IMG/VR virus record: IMGVR_UViG_3300035698_003757
Location: 1-22,259 of that record
Reading direction: 5' to 3' (one strand)
DNA: 22,259 nucleotides
DNA from: a virus
Below, piece by piece: positions 1-9,732 of the stretch. The notes under the pieces are model-generated. The model was not told the DNA's origin. It ran no database searches and worked only from the letters and a program-made list of their open reading frames with translations. Each line of letters opens with the position of its first letter. Position 1 is the stretch's first letter. The position numbers were made by a program, and so were the translations under genes.

Positions 1-2630
1 AATTTATTTTCAGCCATAGTGCGTTCTTTGCCTTTTAAACCTTTTTTATTAGAAACCCTCCGTGCTATCTGCCCTACAGCTGCGTCGTACGCTATGGCAT
101 TTGCCCATGCGTCCAAAGCTCTAAGAGCGTTAGTTGGTGGCGTTACGAACTTACCTATTTTCCTGACAGTAGCATTTGGACTTCTACTGAAAGCACCTAT
201 AGAAGAACTCATTTCTTGCGCCCATTTAGTTTCAAACTCTTGTATTTTGCCTGTCCGTATGACTTGACCGGCTGCTTTACGTCCGCGTTTGAATCCAGAT
301 TTATACCCAAGTAGCATGGGGACTATCTCGTTCAGGTATCTCGACCTCGGTTTTCCGGTTAGTTTAGAGTACGGCATATCAATAGCCGCTGTCATCAAGC
401 TATGAGGCACTTGGTACATAGACCATAGTGTATTACCAACCGTATTCACAACATGAGTCGGCGGGCCTGAAAGTATAGCGTTATACCAATACTCTAAAGC
501 ATAATCAGAAAGTTTAGGATTACCAAGACGCTTAATGAATGTTTTCATTTCCATAGGGTTGGACGTATCAAGCGCTTTAAATTCTTTAAGTTCTCTCTCG
601 TTCAGCCCTCGTTTTAACTTAACATAAGCCGACGCCATAGCCCTAACAGAAACCTCTTTCTTTTGTGCATTTAAGTCTCTACCCGCTTCACTCGCCACTC
701 TATTTAAAGGCTCCCATATCTCTTTATTAAATTTATCAAACTCGGCATTAAATTTTTCTGGTGTTTTTTTTAAAACATCACTAAGCCTGTCAATAGAAGC
801 AACCTCTATCTTACGCATAGCGTCCTTCTCTACCACATTTAGTTTCTCCCCCGCTTGTGATTTTTTTAAAACTGCATCTGTGGCTATTTTATTTAATAAT
901 AATTCTTCACTTAAAACATCAAGCTCTTCCCATGTCTGTATTTTTTTCTTAGAACCCTTCGCAATCTCAGTCTGAAATTCCTTAAACTCTCTCGGTACAT
1001 TTTGCTTCTCAAGATTAATAGATTTAGCATACTTTTTAAGCTCAGTAGTTTTCTCTCCTAATAAAGCTGCTACTTTAGGGTCTATTTTTAAATCAATAAG
1101 ATATTCTTCAACCGTTTTGTTTACCCTTTGGGCATTACGCTTAAATACTTTTATATCCTTAACCAAACGACCATACGCTTCTGTTTGCCTTATGGTACGC
1201 GCAGCATTGCCTATTTCTCCACGTTCGCCTAATAGGGCATTAACGTCGCTTAAGGTGTCTTTAATGGTGCGTTGTTTAATGTCTCCCTTATCAAGTTTAG
1301 CTTCCATAACAGAAACTTGGCTTTTATCAAAAGCGGCATAGTCTATTTTCCCAGTTGTATGTTTTATAGCAAGCCCATCATGCCCTTTTTCTTTTGCCTC
1401 TTTAACTTTAGTGAGTTCTTTTTTCCTATCCCAAAGAGTTTCTTTGATATTTACTTCCATAGGATTTTTAATATCAAATTTAAGCTTGTAAATATCCCCC
1501 TTCATTTCTTTTATAGTTTCAGGTGGTTTCCTATATGGGTAATGAGATTCTACTATATTTGCAAATTGACCTGCTGTTTCTTTTTCAGTTGTGCCCCAAG
1601 ATAAACCATCTTTATTTGTAAACTCAGTTAATCCTTTTTTACTTCTTCCTTGATAGACGGTTATCGGTTTTTTTGTTTTCTTCGGTTCTTCTTTAAATAT
1701 TTCTTTATATTCATCAACTTTTGTTTTATATTCAGTCCCAGCTTTTAGACTTTCTTCTTCTCTTGCAAGTCTTTTTATTGACTTACCTATAACCTTATTC
1801 TTAGCTCGCCGAATATTAATCTCGTTCATCTTTTTTCGTTTGTACTCAATGCCCTCTGGGGTCTGCAAATATCCTTCGAGTTCTTCTGTGCCTTTGTCCA
1901 ACAGGCTTTTTGCTTCTGCTTCTGCTGCGGCTTTCTTCTCGCCTTTAAGTTTCTTTGAAGCCTCAAGCATCTTTCCTGATTTTTTAATACTTGTTTTCCA
2001 TGTAGCGTGTGCGCCACCAAGAACACCGATTTCAAGAATAGAAACAAAAAAATTATGTGCATTAGGGGAAGTTTCTTTATTAATCCAAGGCTCAACCACA
2101 GCATCTAAGCCTTTATGTAATTTCTCAAAACCCTTACCTACAAGTTCTGTACTTGCTTTACCAGACTTAGATTTCGGTGGTTCAACAACCCCACCGAGAG
2201 ATGATATGTACTGAGCTACTTTATTGCCCATTGCCTCTTGTTCCTCTTTAGTCTTAGCGTCATCAAATCCGAGAGCTTTTTGAGCCCGTTTTACAAGTTC
2301 AAGAGGTTTTTCTATCGGCGTATCTTTAGCTAATTTCTCAATAGCATTTTGTATTTTAGATCCTGCAATAGCCCCGTACTGTCCTATTATCGCCGGAAGG
2401 TACGTAGCCACCCCCACACCCAAAGTTTTAGTAGTTTCGTAAGTACCGATAGCAACGTCTTTAACTGTATCACCAATGGTCTCAGGTGGTTTCCACTGAG
2501 CCGCTGCCGTATCAAATGCGTCTTGCTCTTGTTCAGGCGGTTGCCACTGAGCCGCTGCCGTATCAAATGCGTCTTGCTCTTGTTCAGGCGGTTGCCATTG
2601 CTCCGCAAATGTATCAAATAAATCGGTCAT
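1..2630 (-). CDS. Large ejection (internal virion) protein with ADP-ribosyltransferase-like domain, 3' end outside window
   Basis: One uninterrupted frame of 876 codons starts at ATG 2630 and runs off the left edge. The start overlaps the previous stop (TAATG). Position after the gp7-like and coiled-coil genes matches the gp16-type ejection protein of P22-like phages, delivered into the cell with DNA. Visible parts: tandem 17-aa repeats rich in WQPPEQEQDAFD (residues about 1-50); a Gly/Ala-rich, possibly membrane-active stretch (about 65-90); Lys/Glu-rich helices; an ART-PolyVal-like domain at about 320-445 (VYQGRS, GLSWGTTEKETAGQFA, DIKNPMEV, GHDGLAI, DYAAFDKSQV); more coiled coil; then a segment at about 712-735 with LSGPPTHVVNTVGNT, typical of large phage polyvalent or ejection proteins. 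The usual YHGT is YQGR here, so the activity is uncertain. Phage identity is confident; the enzymatic role is inference. Confidence 0.8.
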   Translation of the reverse strand, partial: MTDLFDTFAEQWQPPEQEQDAFDTAAAQWQPPEQEQDAFDTAAAQWKPPETIGDTVKDVAIGTYETTKTLGVGVATYLPAIIGQYGAIAGSKIQNAIEKLAKDTPIEKPLELVKRAQKALGFDDAKTKEEQEAMGNKVAQYISSLGGVVEPPKSKSGKASTELVGKGFEKLHKGLDAVVEPWINKETSPNAHNFFVSILEIGVLGGAHATWKTSIKKSGKMLEASKKLKGEKKAAAEAEAKSLLDKGTEELEGYLQTPEGIEYKRKKMNEINIRRAKNKVIGKSIKRLAREEESLKAGTEYKTKVDEYKEIFKEEPKKTKKPITVYQGRSKKGLTEFTNKDGLSWGTTEKETAGQFANIVESHYPYRKPPETIKEMKGDIYKLKFDIKNPMEVNIKETLWDRKKELTKVKEAKEKGHDGLAIKHTTGKIDYAAFDKSQVSVMEAKLDKGDIKQRTIKDTLSDVNALLGERGEIGNAARTIRQTEAYGRLVKDIKVFKRNAQRVNKTVEEYLIDLKIDPKVAALLGEKTTELKKYAKSINLEKQNVPREFKEFQTEIAKGSKKKIQTWEELDVLSEELLLNKIATDAVLKKSQAGEKLNVVEKDAMRKIEVASIDRLSDVLKKTPEKFNAEFDKFNKEIWEPLNRVASEAGRDLNAQKKEVSVRAMASAYVKLKRGLNERELKEFKALDTSNPMEMKTFIKRLGNPKLSDYALEYWYNAILSGPPTHVVNTVGNTLWSMYQVPHSLMTAAIDMPYSKLTGKPRSRYLNEIVPMLLGYKSGFKRGRKAAGQVIRTGKIQEFETKWAQEMSSSIGAFSRSPNATVRKIGKFVTPPTNALRALDAWANAIAYDAAVGQIARRVSNKKGLKGKERTMAENK
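2493..2630 (-). repeat. 51-bp tandem repeat coding 17-aa units at the N-terminus of the ejection protein
   Basis: Two 51-bp units (2493-2543 and 2544-2594) are identical by eye, and a third diverged, incomplete unit reaches the start codon. They encode repeats of the form DTAAAQWQPPEQEQDAF. The period is a multiple of three, so copy number can change without breaking the frame. Confidence 0.9.
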
Positions 2631-3574
2631 TACCAATTATACCCTCTTTCTTCAGCTAACTTTTTTGCAGCTTGTAAGTCACCGTTAGTCTCATCCATAA
2701 AACCTAACACAATCTCTTGATTTATGGGCTTCTCTGCTGGTGAAGTTTCCTCCTCCTGTACTGGTAGAACCTCCTCCTCCCCCTCTGGTACCATCCCCCC
2801 TCGGTTGACGGGATTAGCATTAGGTCCTAAGTCCGGCACTTCTGGTTCAACCCCTATCGCCCTGTTAACTATCTCTGTAGCTTTATCGTATGACCTAAGC
2901 GCCGTTCGTGGCATAAAGTCCCTATCCCCCCATCTCTTAGTAAGTCTGTCCAAAGTCTTTTGTGCATTTGAAATAGTGTCTTTAATTTCAGTAGCCGCTT
3001 TTTTAACCTCAGCAGCTTTGACTTTAAGCTCTTCCCCTTTCTCTTTAGCCCTCTGTTTAATAATAGCCGCACGCCCCTCTGAGGTCATTTTAGAATAATT
3101 ACCCACGGCTTTACTCTTCCACGCTTCAAATTCCAGTCCAGACATTTTAGGGACTTTACTTATATCAGGATACGCACCTTTTGGAACATGACCGGTTTCT
3201 GTACCATAGTTTATTAAATCCGGAATAGACTCTTTAGTGGAGCCAGGCAAAAAGCTATAAAAATTGTCCATAACTGTCTTAACATTCTTTTGCTCTTTAG
3301 CTATAAGATTAGCTTTATCCATAGCCCCCGCAGTCTCATTTTTAATTATAGCTGCTTTATTCTTTAACTCCGCGCTCTCTACCCCCGCTTCCATCATCGC
3401 ATTTTTAGCATGTATCACATTATAATCAGGGGCTATAGCGCCGACCCTCTCAGTTTTAGGTGCAATAGTTCTGCCTCTTGGCATTGATATCCGAGTACTA
3501 CCGCCACCATGAGACTTATTGTATGCCAATCGTGCGCTCAGTCCCGCTTGCATAGCTCCAACATAATCTACCAT
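2630..3574 (-). CDS. Putative ejection / internal virion protein (gp20 position)
   Basis: The protein has 314 aa from the ATG at 3574, which overlaps the stop of the upstream gene (TAATG) and has a GGGGG-rich ribosome site just before it. A longer GTG start at 3598 is possible but adds only eight residues inside the upstream gene. The middle (roughly residues 60-235) is Lys/Ala/Glu-rich and strongly predicted coiled coil, followed by an acidic Pro/Glu linker and a short C-terminal helix ending LAEERGYNW, a tail motif I associate with internal phage proteins. It lies between the gp7-like and the giant ejection gene and is coupled to both. By position it corresponds to P22 gp20, but I see no sequence proof of that; function is inferred from context. 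Confidence 0.65.
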   Translation of the reverse strand: MVDYVGAMQAGLSARLAYNKSHGGGSTRISMPRGRTIAPKTERVGAIAPDYNVIHAKNAMMEAGVESAELKNKAAIIKNETAGAMDKANLIAKEQKNVKTVMDNFYSFLPGSTKESIPDLINYGTETGHVPKGAYPDISKVPKMSGLEFEAWKSKAVGNYSKMTSEGRAAIIKQRAKEKGEELKVKAAEVKKAATEIKDTISNAQKTLDRLTKRWGDRDFMPRTALRSYDKATEIVNRAIGVEPEVPDLGPNANPVNRGGMVPEGEEEVLPVQEEETSPAEKPINQEIVLGFMDETNGDLQAAKKLAEERGYNW

Positions 3575-4398
3575 TAGAATTGATCCCCCTGTTTCCACGC
3601 TTGATACGCGTAATCTCGTTCATTCGCAGCTTGATCCGCGTCATTCCATATGTTAGTCGCGTTCATGTCACCCTCATATGTGGCACTGGCACCGTAATTT
3701 CGTTCATTTCCTATCTGCTGATTACCGGCAAATCTATTTTGAGCAGAGTCTCTTGCCCCTTGCATAGAGTACCCAGCCATTTTATCAGCAGCACCTAAGC
3801 CCTGACCTGATAAGTTTTGTAATGGGTTAAGAGAATCATAGTACCTATTTAGGAATTTATCATACTCATTGGAAGCATAGTCCTGAGAATACCGTGCTGT
3901 ACCCTTTAAAGCTGCGCCACTTAGCACTCCACCACGTGCCGCTGCTGATCGTTCAAGAGCCTTCTGCCCCTCTTTAAGTCGAAATTGGTATCCAGGACCT
4001 TCTTTAAAATCACCCGGGCCATCGGAAATTTTCTTCTGTAGTTGACCGAGTGCATCTAAACCAGCTTGCCTCCATGGATTAACATCCGACCTCGCTTGAG
4101 CTGTAGCAGCCGTTGTATCTGCTTGTGCATCAACCATACTCTGTTGATACATTTTAATATTTTCATCTGACGCCGCACGTCTTTTAGCAGCTGCTGCTTT
4201 TGAGGAGTCTGCTGCTTTTCGAGCTGCTTTTTTAGCTCTACCCGCCGCTTTACGCTGTGTGGATTTAGAATCTTTACGCGCTTTAGCTAACTGCGCTCTT
4301 TTCGCTTGGAGTTTCCTATAAGAATCCCCAGGCCAACCGTGTCCCGGTATATGCTGGCTCTCAAGGTCTGATATTTCTTGTTCTAATTTTGTTGTCAT
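3574..4398 (-). CDS. DNA transfer / ejection protein, P22 gp7-like
   Basis: The protein has 274 aa. Residues about 30-85 are a Lys/Ala/Arg-rich helical region. A Gln/Ala-rich region then leads into the recognisable block NPWRQAGLDALGQL, PGYQFRLKEGQKALERSAAARGG and GTARYSQDYASNEYDKFLNRY. This 'W..AG..AL..L ... F....G..AL.RSAAARGG..SG' pattern is typical of phage DNA-transfer proteins of the gp7 group, which leave the virion to help DNA cross the envelope. The N-terminus starts MTTKLEQEISDLE at ATG 4398, which touches the stop of the upstream gene (ATGA-type overlap). The downstream ejection gene starts on its stop codon. Family assignment is fairly sure; the exact role in this phage is inferred. 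Confidence 0.82.
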   Translation of the reverse strand: MTTKLEQEISDLESQHIPGHGWPGDSYRKLQAKRAQLAKARKDSKSTQRKAAGRAKKAARKAADSSKAAAAKRRAASDENIKMYQQSMVDAQADTTAATAQARSDVNPWRQAGLDALGQLQKKISDGPGDFKEGPGYQFRLKEGQKALERSAAARGGVLSGAALKGTARYSQDYASNEYDKFLNRYYDSLNPLQNLSGQGLGAADKMAGYSMQGARDSAQNRFAGNQQIGNERNYGASATYEGDMNATNIWNDADQAANERDYAYQAWKQGDQF

Positions 4399-4738: not shown

Positions 4739-5200
4739 TTAAAACCTACACTTTCTTAGTATACTGTACGCTCCTATCAAAACCACTTTAACAGGCGCAG
4801 AAATTGTTAATTCATATATCCGGTTTCTACTCTTACCGAGTGACCTCCATATAGCCCGTATCCCTCGTTCCCCATATTCCCCTATGCTAACTGCTTCTCC
4901 GGTACTAAAGGTATTACCACCATCATTAGACCATTTAAGTGTAGCTTCAGGAGCAGTACCCCCAGAGAGACCTACTCCAGCTTCAAATTCTATTTCAATT
5001 TTACTATGAAGGACATTATTTTTTTCATTATTAATTATCTGAGTCCGACGTACTCTCGTAATCGCGTCCCCATTGTCAGTGTAGGTATCCATATTAAGCG
5101 CATACAATTTACCATTAGCTTTATCGCCTATTATGGTTTTACCATTAAATTGGATACCACCAGTTATACCCGTCGCACCCCTATGTCGCCCTTGTGCCAT
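4739..5200 (-). CDS. Free-standing duplicate of the gp10-type hub C-terminal domain
   Basis: The 153-aa protein begins MAQGRHR and corresponds along its whole length to residues 354-503 of the preceding gene product; by eye about 108 of 150 aligned residues are identical. Shared blocks include LYALNMDTYTD, AITRxRRTQI, PEATLKWS, AIWRSLGKSR and YELTISAPVK. In P22-type phages this domain (nxDgxT/W-type beta sandwich following the propeller) is the C-terminal part of the gp10 hub protein. Even the gene junction is duplicated: both copies end KCRF, TAA, AT, then ATG of the next gene. No Shine-Dalgarno is visible. It may assemble with the truncated hub protein from 6711-8792. Duplication is seen directly; the role is inference. 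Confidence 0.8.
   Translation of the reverse strand: MAQGRHRGATGITGGIQFNGKTIIGDKANGKLYALNMDTYTDNGDAITRVRRTQIINNEKNNVLHSKIEIEFEAGVGLSGGTAPEATLKWSNDGGNTFSTGEAVSIGEYGERGIRAIWRSLGKSRNRIYELTISAPVKVVLIGAYSILRKCRF
4742..5194 (-). repeat. Duplicated gp10 C-terminal domain, copy 2
   Basis: This is the second copy, carried by the stand-alone 153-aa gene. One extra residue is present in the loop after IIGD. Differences are spread along the domain, so the duplication is not brand new. Confidence 0.85.
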
Positions 5201-5202
5201 AT

Positions 5203-6714
5203 TTAAAATCTACACTTTTTTAGTATACTATAAGCACCTATTATAATAATCTTAACAGGCGCAGAAATTGTTAATTCATATATTCTATCCCTACTTTTAC
5301 CAAGCGACCTCCATATGGCTCTTACTCCCCAATCATCATACTCACCTATACTCGTCGTTTCTCCATCACTAAATGTGTCACCATTATCATCTGACCATTT
5401 AAGCGTTGCCTCCGGGTCATCCCCCCCAGAAATACCTACTCCCGCTTCAAATTCTACTTCAATTCTATTATGTAGTATATTAATCTCATCATCACCAACA
5501 ATCTGTGTTCTTCGTATTCTTGTAATTGCCTCCCCTCCGTCAGTATATGTATCCATGTTAAGCGCATATAACACACCGACATTATCGCCTATTACGGTTT
5601 TCTCATTAAAAAGTACACCACCATCTATACCTACTATGCCCCTGTGCCGTCCTTGAGAGGGAGCATATAGCATAATGGAGTGCTTCCCTCCTATCCCCTG
5701 AGCCACACTGTTAACCTTCCATGTGCCAACTTGTGTTAGTGTGGTTCTGTCGACTTCATCACCTAATCCTAATTGACCATAGTAATTACGCCCAGTTGCC
5801 CATAATGTTCCATCAGTCTTAACCGCCATTGTATGCTGATGCACACAAGACACTATATCCCACACCGACAAACTGCCAACCTGTGTAAACTCAAGTACCT
5901 TAGTGGTTCCACCAAGTCCTAACTGCCCGTACGTACCACTCCCAGTAACCCATAGAGTACCGTCAGTCTTAGTAGCCATAGTGCATGTAATACCACAAGA
6001 AACTGACGCCCACGTTGTTAGCGCACCAACTTGTGTTAGTGTGGTTCTCTCAACTTCGTCACCTAACCCTAATCTTCCATCCGTACCCTCCCCCGTAGCC
6101 CACAATGTACCATCAGTCTTAATTGCCATTGTATGCAAATCACCACAAGCAACAGAGCTCCAGGTTGTTAGCGCACCAACTTGTGTGAATTCCAGCCTAT
6201 CAGCACCCCCACCTAACCCTAATTGCCCTGAACTATCTCGACCAGTAGCCCATAATGTACCGTCGGTTCTAATTGCCATTGTGGATAATGACCCACAAGA
6301 GACCGAAGCCCATTCAGATGACGCTCCAGCTTGAGTAAATGAGTATTTAGTATATAGGTCACCGACTCCTAATTGACCATAGCCATTAGCGCCTGTAGCC
6401 CATATAGTACCGTCCGTTTGTATAGCTACTGAGTGATAATACCCACAAGCAACAGCACTATAGGTTGCCACTACGCTAACTATTGTAAACTCTTTTAACG
6501 TAAAAGCACCCGAGATACCTAATTGTCCATCAAGGTTCCATCCAGTAGCCCATAGTTTACCATCGGATTTAATAGCCATAGAATATAGCTCACCAATTGC
6601 AATATAACTCCACGTTGCCAACGTTCCCGCTTGAGTGAATTCAGTTTTGCTAAGCTTGTCTCCAATACCTAATTGCCCAACAGAACCGGAACCAGTACCC
6701 CATAACGTAGTCAT
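5203..6714 (-). CDS. RCC1-repeat beta-propeller fused to gp10-type hub C-terminal domain
   Basis: The protein has 503 aa from ATG 6714, which overlaps the stop of the upstream hub gene (ATGA) and has GGAAGAG six bases upstream; an ATG at 6729 would add five residues. Residues 1-353 contain seven ~50-aa RCC1 repeats with the motif LWATG....GQLGLGD ... W..V.CG..HTMAIKTDGT, enough for one closed seven-bladed propeller. Residues 354-503 (QGRHR to KCRF) are the gp10-type C-terminal hub domain. In homologous hub proteins I would expect QGRHR to follow the WHEW motif that ends the upstream gene, so the propeller seems to have been inserted at, and to have split, the hub gene. The propeller may be an exposed binding domain on the tail; that is inference. 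Confidence 0.85.
   Translation of the reverse strand: MTTLWGTGSGSVGQLGIGDKLSKTEFTQAGTLATWSYIAIGELYSMAIKSDGKLWATGWNLDGQLGISGAFTLKEFTIVSVVATYSAVACGYYHSVAIQTDGTIWATGANGYGQLGVGDLYTKYSFTQAGASSEWASVSCGSLSTMAIRTDGTLWATGRDSSGQLGLGGGADRLEFTQVGALTTWSSVACGDLHTMAIKTDGTLWATGEGTDGRLGLGDEVERTTLTQVGALTTWASVSCGITCTMATKTDGTLWVTGSGTYGQLGLGGTTKVLEFTQVGSLSVWDIVSCVHQHTMAVKTDGTLWATGRNYYGQLGLGDEVDRTTLTQVGTWKVNSVAQGIGGKHSIMLYAPSQGRHRGIVGIDGGVLFNEKTVIGDNVGVLYALNMDTYTDGGEAITRIRRTQIVGDDEINILHNRIEVEFEAGVGISGGDDPEATLKWSDDNGDTFSDGETTSIGEYDDWGVRAIWRSLGKSRDRIYELTISAPVKIIIIGAYSILKKCRF
5206..5655 (-). repeat. Duplicated gp10 C-terminal domain, copy 1
   Basis: This segment is paralogous to 4742-5194, about 70% identical at protein level by eye. 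It includes the same 3' end and gene junction (TGTAGATTTTAAATATG against TGTAGGTTTTAAATATG). Confidence 0.85.
5656..6714 (-). repeat. Seven tandem RCC1-type repeats (~150 bp period)
   Basis: The DNA encoding residues 1-353 of the fusion protein is made of seven units of about 150 bp. The best-conserved part of each codes TMAIKTDGTLWATG and GQLGLGD. Several units share long runs at nucleotide level (for example the stretches around 5740 and 6040), which points to recent internal duplication or gene conversion. Confidence 0.85.
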
Positions 6715-8792
6715 GACAAACTCTTCCATTCATGCCATTGTTTATCTTTGACATTTACTACCCACGTTTGATCGGCTGTTGGGAAGGATATAACATAAAA
6801 TGTACGCCCCTCTAATGAATAAGTATACGCTAAAGCATCTTCTACCGTTGTGTATGTTGACATTTGGTATTCTATAGCTGAAGTAGAAATAGTTTCAAAA
6901 GAATACCCCCTATTCCTAATGATAGTTTTTTTATTAGATAACCAGTATAAAACACCCTCTATTTCCGCTACTGAAGTTAACGACCCGCACCCTATGTCCA
7001 AAATAGCACCTGGTACTCTTTGAAATGGAAAATCAGCGTTACCAGAGTTATAATATACTTCAGTTGAATACTCCCCAAAAAGCCATATATTTTGACGTGT
7101 CGTTCCAATGCCCACTAAAGTATCTGGTGATGCTTCGGCTGTTGCAAAATCAAGTGAATCCCATGCGTAACCGTCATATAGCCCTGATAATTGTATTTTA
7201 CCAGAATCTTTAACCGACACTATAAAATACCCATCAAAAAATACACAATCTGTTGCTTCTGGGAATTTATCTCCTTCTCCCGGTGAAACCATAGCCCTAT
7301 CGCCAGTACCGCTACCTGCTACAGCTATAAATTCTGTTCCACCAAAAGTTACACTTGTCCATGTGTTATCCGCAGGACTCGTTTCTGTTTTCCATGTAAC
7401 CCCGTCATCAGATGTCATTATTCTATTAGACGTACCCGTATCAGCTACCGCTGCAAAACTACTACCCCCATAAGCAACCGATTGCCAGTTATTATTAGCC
7501 GCGCTAACTCTTATAGTCCATGTAGTACCGTCTGGTGAAGTCATAACCCTATTTCCGGTACCTGAATCAGCTACCGCTACAAATAGCCCACCACCATATG
7601 TAACATCTGTCCATGTGTTATTAGCGGCACTAGCCCTTATAGTCCATGAGATTCCGTTAGTCGAGGTCATAACCCTATTTCCGGTACCTGTGTCGGCTAC
7701 AGCTACAAATGTTCCGTTCCCATACGTTACTGATTGCCAATCGTTATCCGCTGCGCTAGTTCTTGTTGTCCAAGTAATCCCATCTGGGGAGGTAAGAACC
7801 CTATTTCCTGTTCCTGTATCAGACACAGCTACAAATAGCCCGCCACCGTATGCAACACTTGTCCAGTCGTTATCTACAGTCGTTACCCTAAACGACCATG
7901 TAATTCCGTCTTCTGAAGTCATAGCGTTCCAGGAGACACCAGAATCAGATACAGCTACGAATGTTCCGTTTCCGTATGTAATATCTGTCCAATCGTTGTC
8001 AGCACGAATGGAAACAGTTTTACCTATTGCTGTTCCACTCGTGAGTGCGACGGCTAAGGTTACTGTATCCCCAGATGGTGTCCCATTAATAGTCGTCCAT
8101 TGGGTAGTACCGTCATCTAACTCTATCCCTATAGTATCCCCATCGGAAAGCCCGGTAATATCAACTACATCTATAGTAAGATTTGTTACTACCCCAGCTA
8201 CTTTAATAGTGGTAATAAAAATAGCGGGACTTACACCTATCGCCCAAGTAATTCCGTCCGAAGATGTCATTACCCTATTGACCGTACCGTCATTTGATAC
8301 CGCTACAAATAACCCATTCCCGTATGTAACTGCTACCCATGTGTTATCAGCAGCACTCGTTCCCGACGCCCAAACCGCCGCACCATCAGCTATGGCAGTT
8401 AGTAATCCGGTAGTTACAATATACCCTTTATCCGTACTGTCACAAATTAATAATTCTAAGCCATTGTTAGCCATTCCAACATGCCCAGTAGCAGTTGTTA
8501 TCGTCCCCAAACTTGTTTCTGTACCAGCGGAATCAATCTCGTATACTGTGTTTCCTACTATCGCATATAAATAATCCCCCATAACGTGCATACGCCTTAC
8601 TATAGCTGTTTTACCAGTATCACAGAAATCGTCTGTTCCCGGCGTCCCATACATAGCTATAGGTGTTTTACCCTCATTCTTGTCATAAACAGGAAACAAA
8701 TTTATACTCTGTTGGGCATTTATACTTTTCGATCTGCCCTCATATGCGCCACCAAGAAACGGGATTTGAATAGTAGTACCTGGTTCAGCCAT
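6711..8792 (-). CDS. Tail hub / packaged-DNA stabilisation protein, P22 gp10-like, C-terminally truncated and carrying an inserted repeat propeller
   Basis: The protein has 693 aa from ATG 8792, chosen because GGGGAGG lies five bases upstream and the previous stop is one base away. Residues 1-140 (IPFLGGAYEGRSKSINAQQSINLFP ... TPGTDDF) and 515-693 (FFDGYFIVS, LVGIGTTRQNIWLFG, STEVYYNSG, WHEWKSLS) fit gp10-type hub proteins that lie below the portal and gp4 and close the DNA channel. Between them, residues about 148-515 hold seven ~40-aa repeats (YGxGxFVAVxDxGTxNRVMTSxDGxTW). Residues 194-264 are a foreign module also found in the gp4-like neighbour. The usual C-terminal domain is missing here but encoded by the next two genes. 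Function is probable from family and order. Confidence 0.82.
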   Translation of the reverse strand: MAEPGTTIQIPFLGGAYEGRSKSINAQQSINLFPVYDKNEGKTPIAMYGTPGTDDFCDTGKTAIVRRMHVMGDYLYAIVGNTVYEIDSAGTETSLGTITTATGHVGMANNGLELLICDSTDKGYIVTTGLLTAIADGAAVWASGTSAADNTWVAVTYGNGLFVAVSNDGTVNRVMTSSDGITWAIGVSPAIFITTIKVAGVVTNLTIDVVDITGLSDGDTIGIELDDGTTQWTTINGTPSGDTVTLAVALTSGTAIGKTVSIRADNDWTDITYGNGTFVAVSDSGVSWNAMTSEDGITWSFRVTTVDNDWTSVAYGGGLFVAVSDTGTGNRVLTSPDGITWTTRTSAADNDWQSVTYGNGTFVAVADTGTGNRVMTSTNGISWTIRASAANNTWTDVTYGGGLFVAVADSGTGNRVMTSPDGTTWTIRVSAANNNWQSVAYGGSSFAAVADTGTSNRIMTSDDGVTWKTETSPADNTWTSVTFGGTEFIAVAGSGTGDRAMVSPGEGDKFPEATDCVFFDGYFIVSVKDSGKIQLSGLYDGYAWDSLDFATAEASPDTLVGIGTTRQNIWLFGEYSTEVYYNSGNADFPFQRVPGAILDIGCGSLTSVAEIEGVLYWLSNKKTIIRNRGYSFETISTSAIEYQMSTYTTVEDALAYTYSLEGRTFYVISFPTADQTWVVNVKDKQWHEWKSLS
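7248..8351 (-). repeat. Seven ~40-aa repeats (~120 bp period) inserted in the hub gene
   Basis: Units follow the pattern (D/N)N.W..V.YG.G.FVAV.D.GT.NRVMTS.DG.TW. The SxDGxTW part resembles, but is one residue shorter than, sialidase-type Asp boxes. Repeat 1 (residues 148-190) is separated from repeats 2-7 by the module at 8001-8213. Seven units suggest a seven-bladed propeller. Confidence 0.85.
8001..8213 (-). repeat. Module shared with the gp4-like gene, copy in the hub gene
   Basis: Residues 194-264 of the hub protein (IKVAGVV ... GIELDDGTTQWTTING ... ALTSGTAIGKTV) match residues 94-163 of the gp4-like protein. The core 8083-8133 is identical over 51 bp to 9323-9373. Confidence 0.9.
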
Positions 8793-8793
8793 A

Positions 8794-9732
8794 TTACCTC
8801 CCCATGCCCGGTTGAAAGAAAGTAGACGCCTTTTCAGCATCAAACGTACTGGCCATAAATTTGGTTGAAGCCGCTAAATTCTTTAACTCTCTATCTATCG
8901 GAACACCTGTTTTAAGAGCTATACGAACCGCTAAATTAAGAACTATAGTATCCGTCCACTCTGGAGGAAACTCGCCGTCATCATCGGTAGCATCAAAATC
9001 CATAATAGGTACTTTTACAGTCGCTTTTATACGTTGCTGTGGGTCAGCATTAGTAGGCCACACGTGTAAAATTCCGTTAGTTAATTGAGGATCATACCAA
9101 AATTGTGTTACTTGGCCTGTACTGTCCTTATCTGACAACGCCATATACTCTTCTTGTGATATTTTTATTAAAGGAGTTTCATTCTCACTTGAATTAACGT
9201 TACGGGCTTCTATTATTTCAAGAGGTCTTTGGGCTTTGGTTGTATACACATAAACATAATTATCTATAGCCGCAGCACTGGTAAGTGCGGTAGTTAAAGT
9301 TACTACATACGTTGCCGGATCGCCATTAATAGTCGTCCATTGGGTAGTACCGTCATCTAACTCTATCCCTATATAATCCGCATCAGAAATCCCGGTAAGA
9401 CTATCCACTGTAATAGTCGCATCAGCAGCTACCCCTGCTACTTTCATAGCAGTCATTACAACCCCTGATGTAGCAGTAAAATTGTCACCTGACGGTCCTA
9501 ATGAATATGTCTCACCTCCGGATTTAAGGAATAAAGTAACTTTCCTATTTAGCCACAGAAAAATACTCTCTGTCTGCCAGCCCTTTAGCATCATATTGAG
9601 AGTTACACCACCATCTGTAAGCTCCGTAGCCGTAAGTGTAGACCGTATATCAACCGCCCCTATGTACCTGTAGGCCTGTGTTATTAACTCGTCTCTATCT
9701 AAAACAAAATCATACGATCCAGAGGTAGTCAT
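8794..9732 (-). CDS. Head-to-tail adaptor / head completion protein, P22 gp4-like
   Basis: The protein has 312 aa starting at ATG 9732 on the stop of the upstream gene (TAATG), with GGGGG ten bases before. The N-terminal block (residues 11-55: DELITQAYRYIGAV ... LTATELTDGGVTLNMMLKGWQTE) follows the gp4 pattern 'L...A.r.lG.......t..e...a...Ln.ml..wq'. The C-terminal block (256-300: PPEWTDTIVLNLAVRIALKTG ... LKNLAASTKFMAS) also fits this family. Gp4-type proteins bind the portal after packaging and form the base for the hub. Residues 94-163 are a separate beta-rich module, common in the enlarged gp4 relatives of marine-type phages, and it was copied into the neighbouring hub gene. Fairly sure. 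Confidence 0.82.
   Translation of the reverse strand: MTTSGSYDFVLDRDELITQAYRYIGAVDIRSTLTATELTDGGVTLNMMLKGWQTESIFLWLNRKVTLFLKSGGETYSLGPSGDNFTATSGVVMTAMKVAGVAADATITVDSLTGISDADYIGIELDDGTTQWTTINGDPATYVVTLTTALTSAAAIDNYVYVYTTKAQRPLEIIEARNVNSSENETPLIKISQEEYMALSDKDSTGQVTQFWYDPQLTNGILHVWPTNADPQQRIKATVKVPIMDFDATDDDGEFPPEWTDTIVLNLAVRIALKTGVPIDRELKNLAASTKFMASTFDAEKASTFFQPGMGR
9244..9453 (-). repeat. Module shared with the hub gene, copy in the gp4-like gene
   Basis: The module encodes MKVAGVAADATITVDSLTG, then GIELDDGTTQWTTING and a TTALTSAAAIDN tail. It is identical to the hub-gene copy over 51 bp (9323-9373) and similar on both sides. Confidence 0.9.

What the first reader, a model, noticed from the sequence alone, without database searches (positions are those of the whole stretch)
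1300..1670. ADP-ribosyltransferase-like domain inside the giant ejection protein
VYQGRS ... GLSWGTTEKETAGQFA ... GDIYKLKFDIKNPMEV ... GHDGLAI ... DYAAFDKSQV follows the ART-PolyVal pattern known from polyvalent phage proteins. If active, the phage injects an ART together with its DNA, comparable in idea to T4 Alt. The usual YHGT is YQGR, so either an altered or a dead enzyme is possible.
Basis: partly seen in the sequence, partly recalled or inferred. Interest (0 to 1): 0.8.

Follow-up and report, generated by a model that had tools for sequence, protein, structure and literature searches.

The report
Altered ADP-ribosyltransferase domain in ejection protein
A short-tailed phage carries, inside the protein it ejects into its host at the start of infection, a swappable domain with the fold of toxin-like ADP-ribosyltransferases; its usual catalytic histidine is replaced by glutamine, and an unrelated phage shares that replacement, so it looks like a real variant subfamily rather than a broken copy, although enzyme activity is unproven.

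Summary
The domain is real: minus strand, window 1293-1673, residues 322-448 of an 878-aa, contig-cut protein. It belongs to the ART-PolyVal family (Pfam PF18760, E 3e-5 for the isolated domain but 25.2 bits against a cut-off of 31.2; 41.9 bits with a 66-member profile against 15.9 for the best of 5000 shuffles). AlphaFold2 gives a confident model (pLDDT 82.7) matching PARP, ParT, MbcT and NatT folds. The carrier is a T7 gp16-type internal virion (ejection) protein, judged from its full-length homologue L002 (phrog_6651, E 4e-19). The 87%-identical L002 lacks the ART. A distant gp16-type protein, L120, carries a separate, canonical (YHGT) ART exactly where ~82%-identical relatives have none: ARTs are cassettes gained at least twice. 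YQGR replaces YHGT. A scan that left H or Q free at that site found a 48%-identical ART with YQGRSKKGLT in an unrelated polyvalent phage protein (L139), which passes the Pfam cut-off; H-to-Q is a subfamily signature, not private decay or sequencing error. Delivery is inferred from the carrier. Catalysis, target and topology are not shown. New variant of a known kind.

The parts
3..2636 (-). T7 gp16-type internal virion (ejection) protein, 878 residues present, C-terminus cut by the contig end; likely start ATG at 2630 (numbering here runs from the TTG at 2636)
   Evidence: Open frame; full-length 87%-identical homologue L002 (1246 aa) matches phrog_6651 internal virion protein E 4e-19 and annotated internal virion proteins of T7-like phages by tblastn
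1293..1673 (-). ART-PolyVal domain (residues 322-448), YQGR subfamily
1644..1658 (-). strand-1 motif VYQGR; Q329 (codon 1652-1650) at the catalytic His position, R331 at the Thr/Ser position
   Evidence: H in 63/66 family members; Q shared with L139
1596..1598 (-). W347 at the strand-2 aromatic (Tyr) position; the following family Phe is Gly348
   Evidence: family column Y24/F20/W16 of 66 and F62/66; profile alignment
1563..1565 (-). F358 at the second pocket aromatic (family Y45/F13)
1377..1379 (-). D420 of GHDG, which opens beta strand 5 of the model; assigned here to the Asp of the H-Y-D triad
   Evidence: D in 58/65; strand 107-111 of the model follows it; the H-Y-D definition is from PMC5512222, the assignment to this column is my inference
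1314..1343 (-). last core strands DYAAFDKSQV with the family Gln (Q440)
   Evidence: Q 64/64 in the profile (members without QIK were excluded; count)
1677..1847 (-). helical linker (residues 264-320) just N-terminal of the ART; L002 has a second, 62%-identical copy of it and no ART
   Evidence: two hits of residues 264-318 in L002; alignment A3
3..1283 (-). conserved ejection-protein core (from residue 452), 87% identical in L002 and 48% in L003
2630..3598 (-). 322-aa gene at the gp15 position between the other two ejection genes; no family match
   Evidence: position only
3574..4398 (-). gp14/gp7-like DNA ejection protein, 274 aa
   Evidence: phrog_598 'DNA ejection', E 3.3e-21

Best explanation
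The phage carries an ART-fold cargo cassette on its gp16-type ejection protein. The cassette sits in a variable linker just before the conserved ejection core, so it is built into the virion with the other ejection proteins and leaves the head at the start of infection. Shown: family, fold, the carrier's homology, cassette presence or absence in close relatives, and a conserved YQGR subfamily in two unrelated phages. Inferred from the carrier family: packaging and ejection. Inferred and least certain: once across the envelope the domain binds NAD+ or an ADP-ribosyl group through the retained aromatic (W347/F358) and Asp420 pocket, and modifies or sequesters a host factor early in infection. 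With Gln in place of the triad His, I expect weak, altered or target-restricted transfer, or NAD hydrolysis, rather than ordinary ART-PolyVal activity.
For: Pfam ART-PolyVal E 3e-5; own profile 41.9 bits against 15.9 for 5000 shuffles. AF2 pLDDT 82.7, pTM 0.77, matching ParT (Foldseek prob 1.00, E 3.4e-3), PARP2 Z 9.3 over 110 residues at 3.2 A, MbcT and NatT, and 41 viral models at E<1e-3, many named ART-PolyVal. Carrier: phrog_6651 internal virion protein, T7-like IVP D hits, neighbouring phrog_598 ejection gene. Cassette: absent in L002, L003, L118, L119; independent canonical ART cleanly inserted in L120/L124 against L121/L123. Subfamily: L139 ART 48% identical with YQGRSKKGLT, over the Pfam cut-off at 48.4 bits, clade support 100/98. 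A solved virion pre-ejectosome protein, cyanophage A4 gp27 (9k3a_B), holds an ART-like fold (prob 0.99; Z 6.4).
Against: The triad His is replaced and the strand-2 Phe (62/66) is Gly; PARP13, which lacks the His, is inactive (PMC9964302). The window domain alone misses the Pfam cut-off and has a longer branch than L139 (1.07 vs 0.20). Topology is unknown: T7 gp16-N is periplasmic and gp16-C (411-1118) is placed in the cytoplasm (PMC8954989), and this domain lies near that boundary; NAD+ is cytoplasmic (general knowledge). No homologue of the carrier is known from an isolate with virion proteomics.
Confidence: 0.55

Rival explanations
1. Pseudo-ART: the domain keeps the fold but is not an enzyme. 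It works as a binding module (for NAD+, ADP-ribose, nucleic acid or a protein partner), or as an inhibitor of host NAD- or ADPr-based defence.
For: H-to-Q, T-to-R and F-to-G in the pocket, the Q and R shared with L139, where the YQGR ART follows a canonical YHGS ART in the same chain, as expected if the second copy took a non-catalytic role. His loss inactivates PARP13.
Against: Aromatic, NP, GxDG and Q positions are conserved between the two phages, and an intact pocket is also what a working enzyme would keep. Natural family members also have T or S at the His (3/66).
Confidence: 0.35
2. Decaying passenger: an acquired ART on its way to loss, kept only because it is in frame.
For: Present in one of five related ejection proteins; long branch of the window copy and loss of the QIK lysine. 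In the separate L120/L124 cassette, replacement changes exceed silent ones (7 vs 1, against 33 vs 54 in the rest of the gene, Fisher p 0.009), compatible with relaxed constraint.
Against: The Q motif is shared with L139 at 48% overall identity, including 11 consecutive residues (VYQGRSKKGLT). A random decay would not converge on it. The same 7-vs-1 excess would also fit diversifying selection, the numbers are tiny and the comparison was chosen after the fact.
Confidence: 0.1
3. Structural spacer: the insertion merely lengthens a linker of the ejection protein, equivalent to the duplicated helical linker of L002.
For: It occupies the place where L002 has a second linker copy.
Against: It is a full ART domain with family motifs, not a generic spacer; L003, L118 and L119 do without either.
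Confidence: 0.05

Closest known systems
ART-PolyVal (PF18760), Tox-ART-HYD2 clade of polyvalent proteins (Iyer et al. 2017, PMC5512222)
   Same: Profile, fold, strand-5 Asp, aromatic pocket positions, occurrence in large virion-linked phage proteins
   Different: Catalytic His is Gln, Thr is Arg, strand-2 Phe is Gly; the carrier is a gp16-type ejection protein in which no second enzymatic domain was found
Second ART of the polyvalent protein of IMG/VR contig 3300029449_000007 (L139:6514-6894)
   Same: 48% identity, YQGRSKKGLT motif, W in strand 2
   Different: Sits in a 2273-aa protein with a methyltransferase-like domain and a canonical ART; that phage has no detected homologue of this ejection protein
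T4 Alt (packaged, injected ART)
   Same: Idea: an ART-fold protein delivered from the head
   Different: Alt is of the R-S-E clade and has shown activity; here Q-W-D, activity unknown, and part of the ejection machine itself
Cyanophage A4 gp27 in the pre-ejectosome (PDB 9K3A; Hou et al. 2025, cited in PMC12810830)
   Same: ART-like fold with a YHGT segment inside a head-resident ejectosome protein
   Different: Unrelated 1717-aa protein, canonical His; the original paper could not be read here, so whether its authors named the domain is unknown
L120/L124 internal virion proteins (IMG/VR)
   Same: ART cassette inserted N-terminal of the core of a gp16-type protein
   Different: Canonical YHGT, 16% identical domain, an independent gain

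Membership tests
ART-PolyVal (PF18760) | Profile score over the curated cut-off of 31.2 bits | tested here: inconclusive
   Window 25.2 bits, E 3e-5, under the cut-off; its YQGR sister 48.4 bits, over it
ART-PolyVal (PF18760) | ART fold | tested here: met
   AF2 pLDDT 82.7; PARP2 Z 9.3 over 110 residues, ParT Foldseek prob 1.00
ART-PolyVal (PF18760) | His in strand 1 (H-Y-D triad) | tested here: not met
   Q329; H in 63/66 members. So: a relative and likely variant subfamily, not a canonical member
ART-PolyVal (PF18760) | Tyr in strand 2 | tested here: inconclusive
   W347; the column is Y24/F20/W16 in the family itself
ART-PolyVal (PF18760) | Asp in strand 5 | tested here: met
   D420 directly before model strand 107-111; D in 58/65; assignment of the triad Asp to this column is inferred
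ART-PolyVal (PF18760) | ADP-ribosyl transfer from NAD+ | not testable with these tools
   Needs biochemistry
T4 Alt/VIP2 (R-S-E clade) | Arg, Ser, Glu active site | tested here: not met
   Q329, W347, D420 at the equivalent positions; clade definition from PMC5512222
T7 gp16-type internal virion protein | Homology to internal virion protein D | tested here: met
   Through full-length L002: phrog_6651 E 4e-19; S-TIP28 E 6e-14, ProddE E 8e-15. No direct match to solved T7 gp16 sequences
T7 gp16-type internal virion protein | Last of three adjacent ejection genes | tested here: inconclusive
   phrog_598 ejection gene two genes upstream and a 322-aa gene between; the middle gene has no family match
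Polyvalent protein | Two or more domains of unrelated biochemical activity in one chain | tested here: inconclusive
   Only the ART is recognised and the C-terminus is missing; full-length L002 shows no Pfam domain at all

The most novel reading that the evidence does not exclude
YQGR domains are a distinct, catalytically working ART class (Gln-aromatic-Asp instead of His-Tyr-Asp) that moves between giant polyvalent proteins and T7-type ejectosomes, so that the DNA-delivery machine itself carries an exchangeable host-modifying enzyme.
Probability: 0.25. Interest if true: 0.75.

Novelty: new variant of a known kind. Interest (0 to 1): 0.5.

Why it matters
ARTs in virion-delivered phage proteins were predicted in 2017, but mostly in giant polyvalent, MuF or portal fusions. 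Here the carrier is a gp16-type ejection protein, a component whose homologue in T7 forms the DNA channel, and the ART is a clean presence/absence cassette gained at least twice. Matched natural pairs (with and without the ART) make the function of an ejected ART testable, and the conserved Gln asks whether the ART fold can work without its triad His.

Tried and rejected
Single-protein scan of IMG/VR with the window ART found no relative; a mixed six-member alignment was too diverse to scan. NCBIfam and PADLOC: nothing. Sequence searches of the PDB with the ART and with the ejection protein: no relevant hit. Both genome-contig scans (ejection core; YQGR pair) and the plasmid search were empty, so no host can be named. 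Rejected: chance resemblance (shuffle control); Alt-clade membership (active-site residues); sequencing error as the cause of Gln (L139). Considered and not relied on: low G+C of the ART segment (33% against 40-41% in the flanks) as a sign of recent transfer, because the neighbouring linker is equally low (30%). The L120/L124 substitution excess rests on 8 changes and was post hoc. The Pfam hit ISP_coupler at residues 608-649 is far below its cut-off and was ignored. The 66-member set was gathered with patterns VVDENGE or FNPNQI and trimmed on QIK, so its conservation counts lean towards canonical members.

Full report
What is there. The window is a complete IMG/VR record of 22,259 bases holding the structural half of a short-tailed phage, all on the minus strand: terminase-like, portal, capsid, head-closure and ejection genes. 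The last gene (3-2636, minus) is cut by the contig end after 878 codons.

Is it an ART? Pfam ART-PolyVal matches the isolated domain at E 3e-5 and 25.2 bits, short of the curated 31.2. To test this independently I collected 80 ART-PolyVal loci from IMG/VR, built a profile of 66 and scored the window: 41.9 bits, i-E 3.5e-10 in a space of 38,000. The best of 5000 shuffles of the same domain reached 15.9 bits. AlphaFold2 with 49 relatives gave pLDDT 82.7 and pTM 0.77. Foldseek's best solved matches are the ART toxin ParT (prob 1.00, E 3.4e-3), then MbcT and tankyrases. VIA-align gives PARP2 Z 9.3 (110 residues, 3.2 A) and a run of PARP, MbcT and NatT structures. Among predicted viral proteins 41 match at E<1e-3, many named ART-PolyVal. 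The model used an alignment of ART relatives, so fold and sequence evidence are not fully independent.

The active site. Iyer et al. define this clade by His in strand 1, Tyr in strand 2 and Asp in strand 5 (PMC5512222). In my 66 members the strand-1 His is present in 63, the strand-2 aromatic is Y/F/W, and the GxDG Asp is present in 58 of 65. The window has Q329, W347 and D420. Two further changes are T-to-R (R331) and F-to-G (G348).

Error, decay or subfamily? A DNA pattern across the site, which left the codon free to read His or Gln but fixed the following GRSKK, was scanned over IMG/VR. It hit one contig, L139, in a 2273-aa protein carrying a canonical YHGS ART and then an ART reading VYQGRSKKGLT. 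That second ART is 48% identical to the window's over 119 residues, exceeds the Pfam cut-off (48.4 bits) and groups with the window at 100/98 support. Because the pattern fixed the Arg, only the Gln is an independent observation. The L139 protein's N-terminus matches F116-like phage structural and DarB-like proteins and its contig shows no relative of the window's ejection protein. The Gln is therefore a subfamily feature that occurs in unrelated carriers. The window copy is the faster-evolving of the two (branch 1.07 vs 0.20).

The carrier. A full-length homologue, L002 (1246 aa, 87% identical in the core), matches phrog_6651 'internal virion protein' at 4e-19 and annotated internal virion proteins of T7-like phages. 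The gene two upstream is a phrog_598 DNA-ejection protein, so the order resembles the gp14-gp15-gp16 trio. Profile searches did not reach solved T7 gp16 sequences. The assignment rests on these intermediates.

A cassette, gained more than once. L002 has no ART; in its place is a second copy of the helical linker. L003, L118 and L119 also lack it. A separate group of gp16-type proteins contains L120 and L124, whose ART (YHGT, E 4e-7 and 2.5e-6) is inserted cleanly where L121 and L123, about 82% identical, have nothing. Its model is also an ART fold, though with lower scores (pLDDT 83.1; ParT Z 6.9). The two ARTs lie far apart in the tree, so these are separate gains. Between L120 and L124 the ART has 7 replacement and 1 silent change against 33 and 54 elsewhere (Fisher p 0.009). 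This is a small, post hoc hint of relaxed or diversifying selection, for that cassette only.

A solved precedent. Cyanophage A4 gp27, part of the pre-ejectosome in PDB 9K3A, matches the ART models (prob 0.99, Z 6.4) and contains a YHGT segment near residue 1424, although my own profile did not score it. An ART-like domain can thus sit in an ejectosome inside a head. The original paper was not available.

How it probably works. Ejection proteins leave the head before or with the DNA (PMC8954989). If the same holds here the ART enters with them. In T7 the N-terminal part of gp16 stays in the periplasm and the C-terminal part (411-1118) is placed in the cytoplasm. This ART lies just before the conserved core, so either side is possible, and only the cytoplasm offers NAD+ (general knowledge). 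I take an early effector with altered catalysis or NAD/ADP-ribose binding as most likely, with a non-enzymatic pseudo-ART close behind. PARP13 shows that His loss can abolish activity (PMC9964302).

Verdict. Observation confirmed; interpretation partly supported. A new variant (YQGR subfamily, gp16-type carrier) of a known kind (ART-PolyVal in virion-delivered proteins).

Noticed in passing
L120:4015-7920 and L124 vs L121:4327-8088 and L123:4333-8088: A clean ~106-residue ART-PolyVal insertion with intact YHGT in one group of gp16-type internal virion proteins, absent in ~82%-identical relatives.
   Followed up: yes
L139:2554-9375: 2273-aa polyvalent protein with methyltransferase-like region, a HENKH metallopeptidase-like motif, and two ARTs in tandem, canonical YHGS then YQGR.
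   Followed up: partly
L137:20116-25269 (Anabaena phage A-4L gp27, PDB 9K3A chain B): Pre-ejectosome protein labelled 'tail protein' with an ART-like segment (YHGT near residue 1424) preceded by what looks like a ParB-like stretch; possibly unannotated.
   Followed up: partly
window 5203-6729 minus: 508-aa protein made of repeats resembling RCC1-type repeats (GxLxATGxxxxGQLGxG), between head-closure and ejection genes; its C-terminal ~150 residues resemble the next gene (4739-5200).
   Followed up: no
window 6711-8843 minus: Head-closure (Hc3-type) protein with a large internal array of repeats (SADNxWxxVxYGxGxFVAVxDxGTxNRVMTSxDGxTW) inserted before the phrog_578 part; the repeat region accounts for many of the matches in L008-L021.
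   Followed up: no
window 2491-2630 minus: Near-identical tandem copies of a short N-terminal repeat (DAFDTAAAQWQPPEQEQ) at the start of the ejection protein.
   Followed up: no
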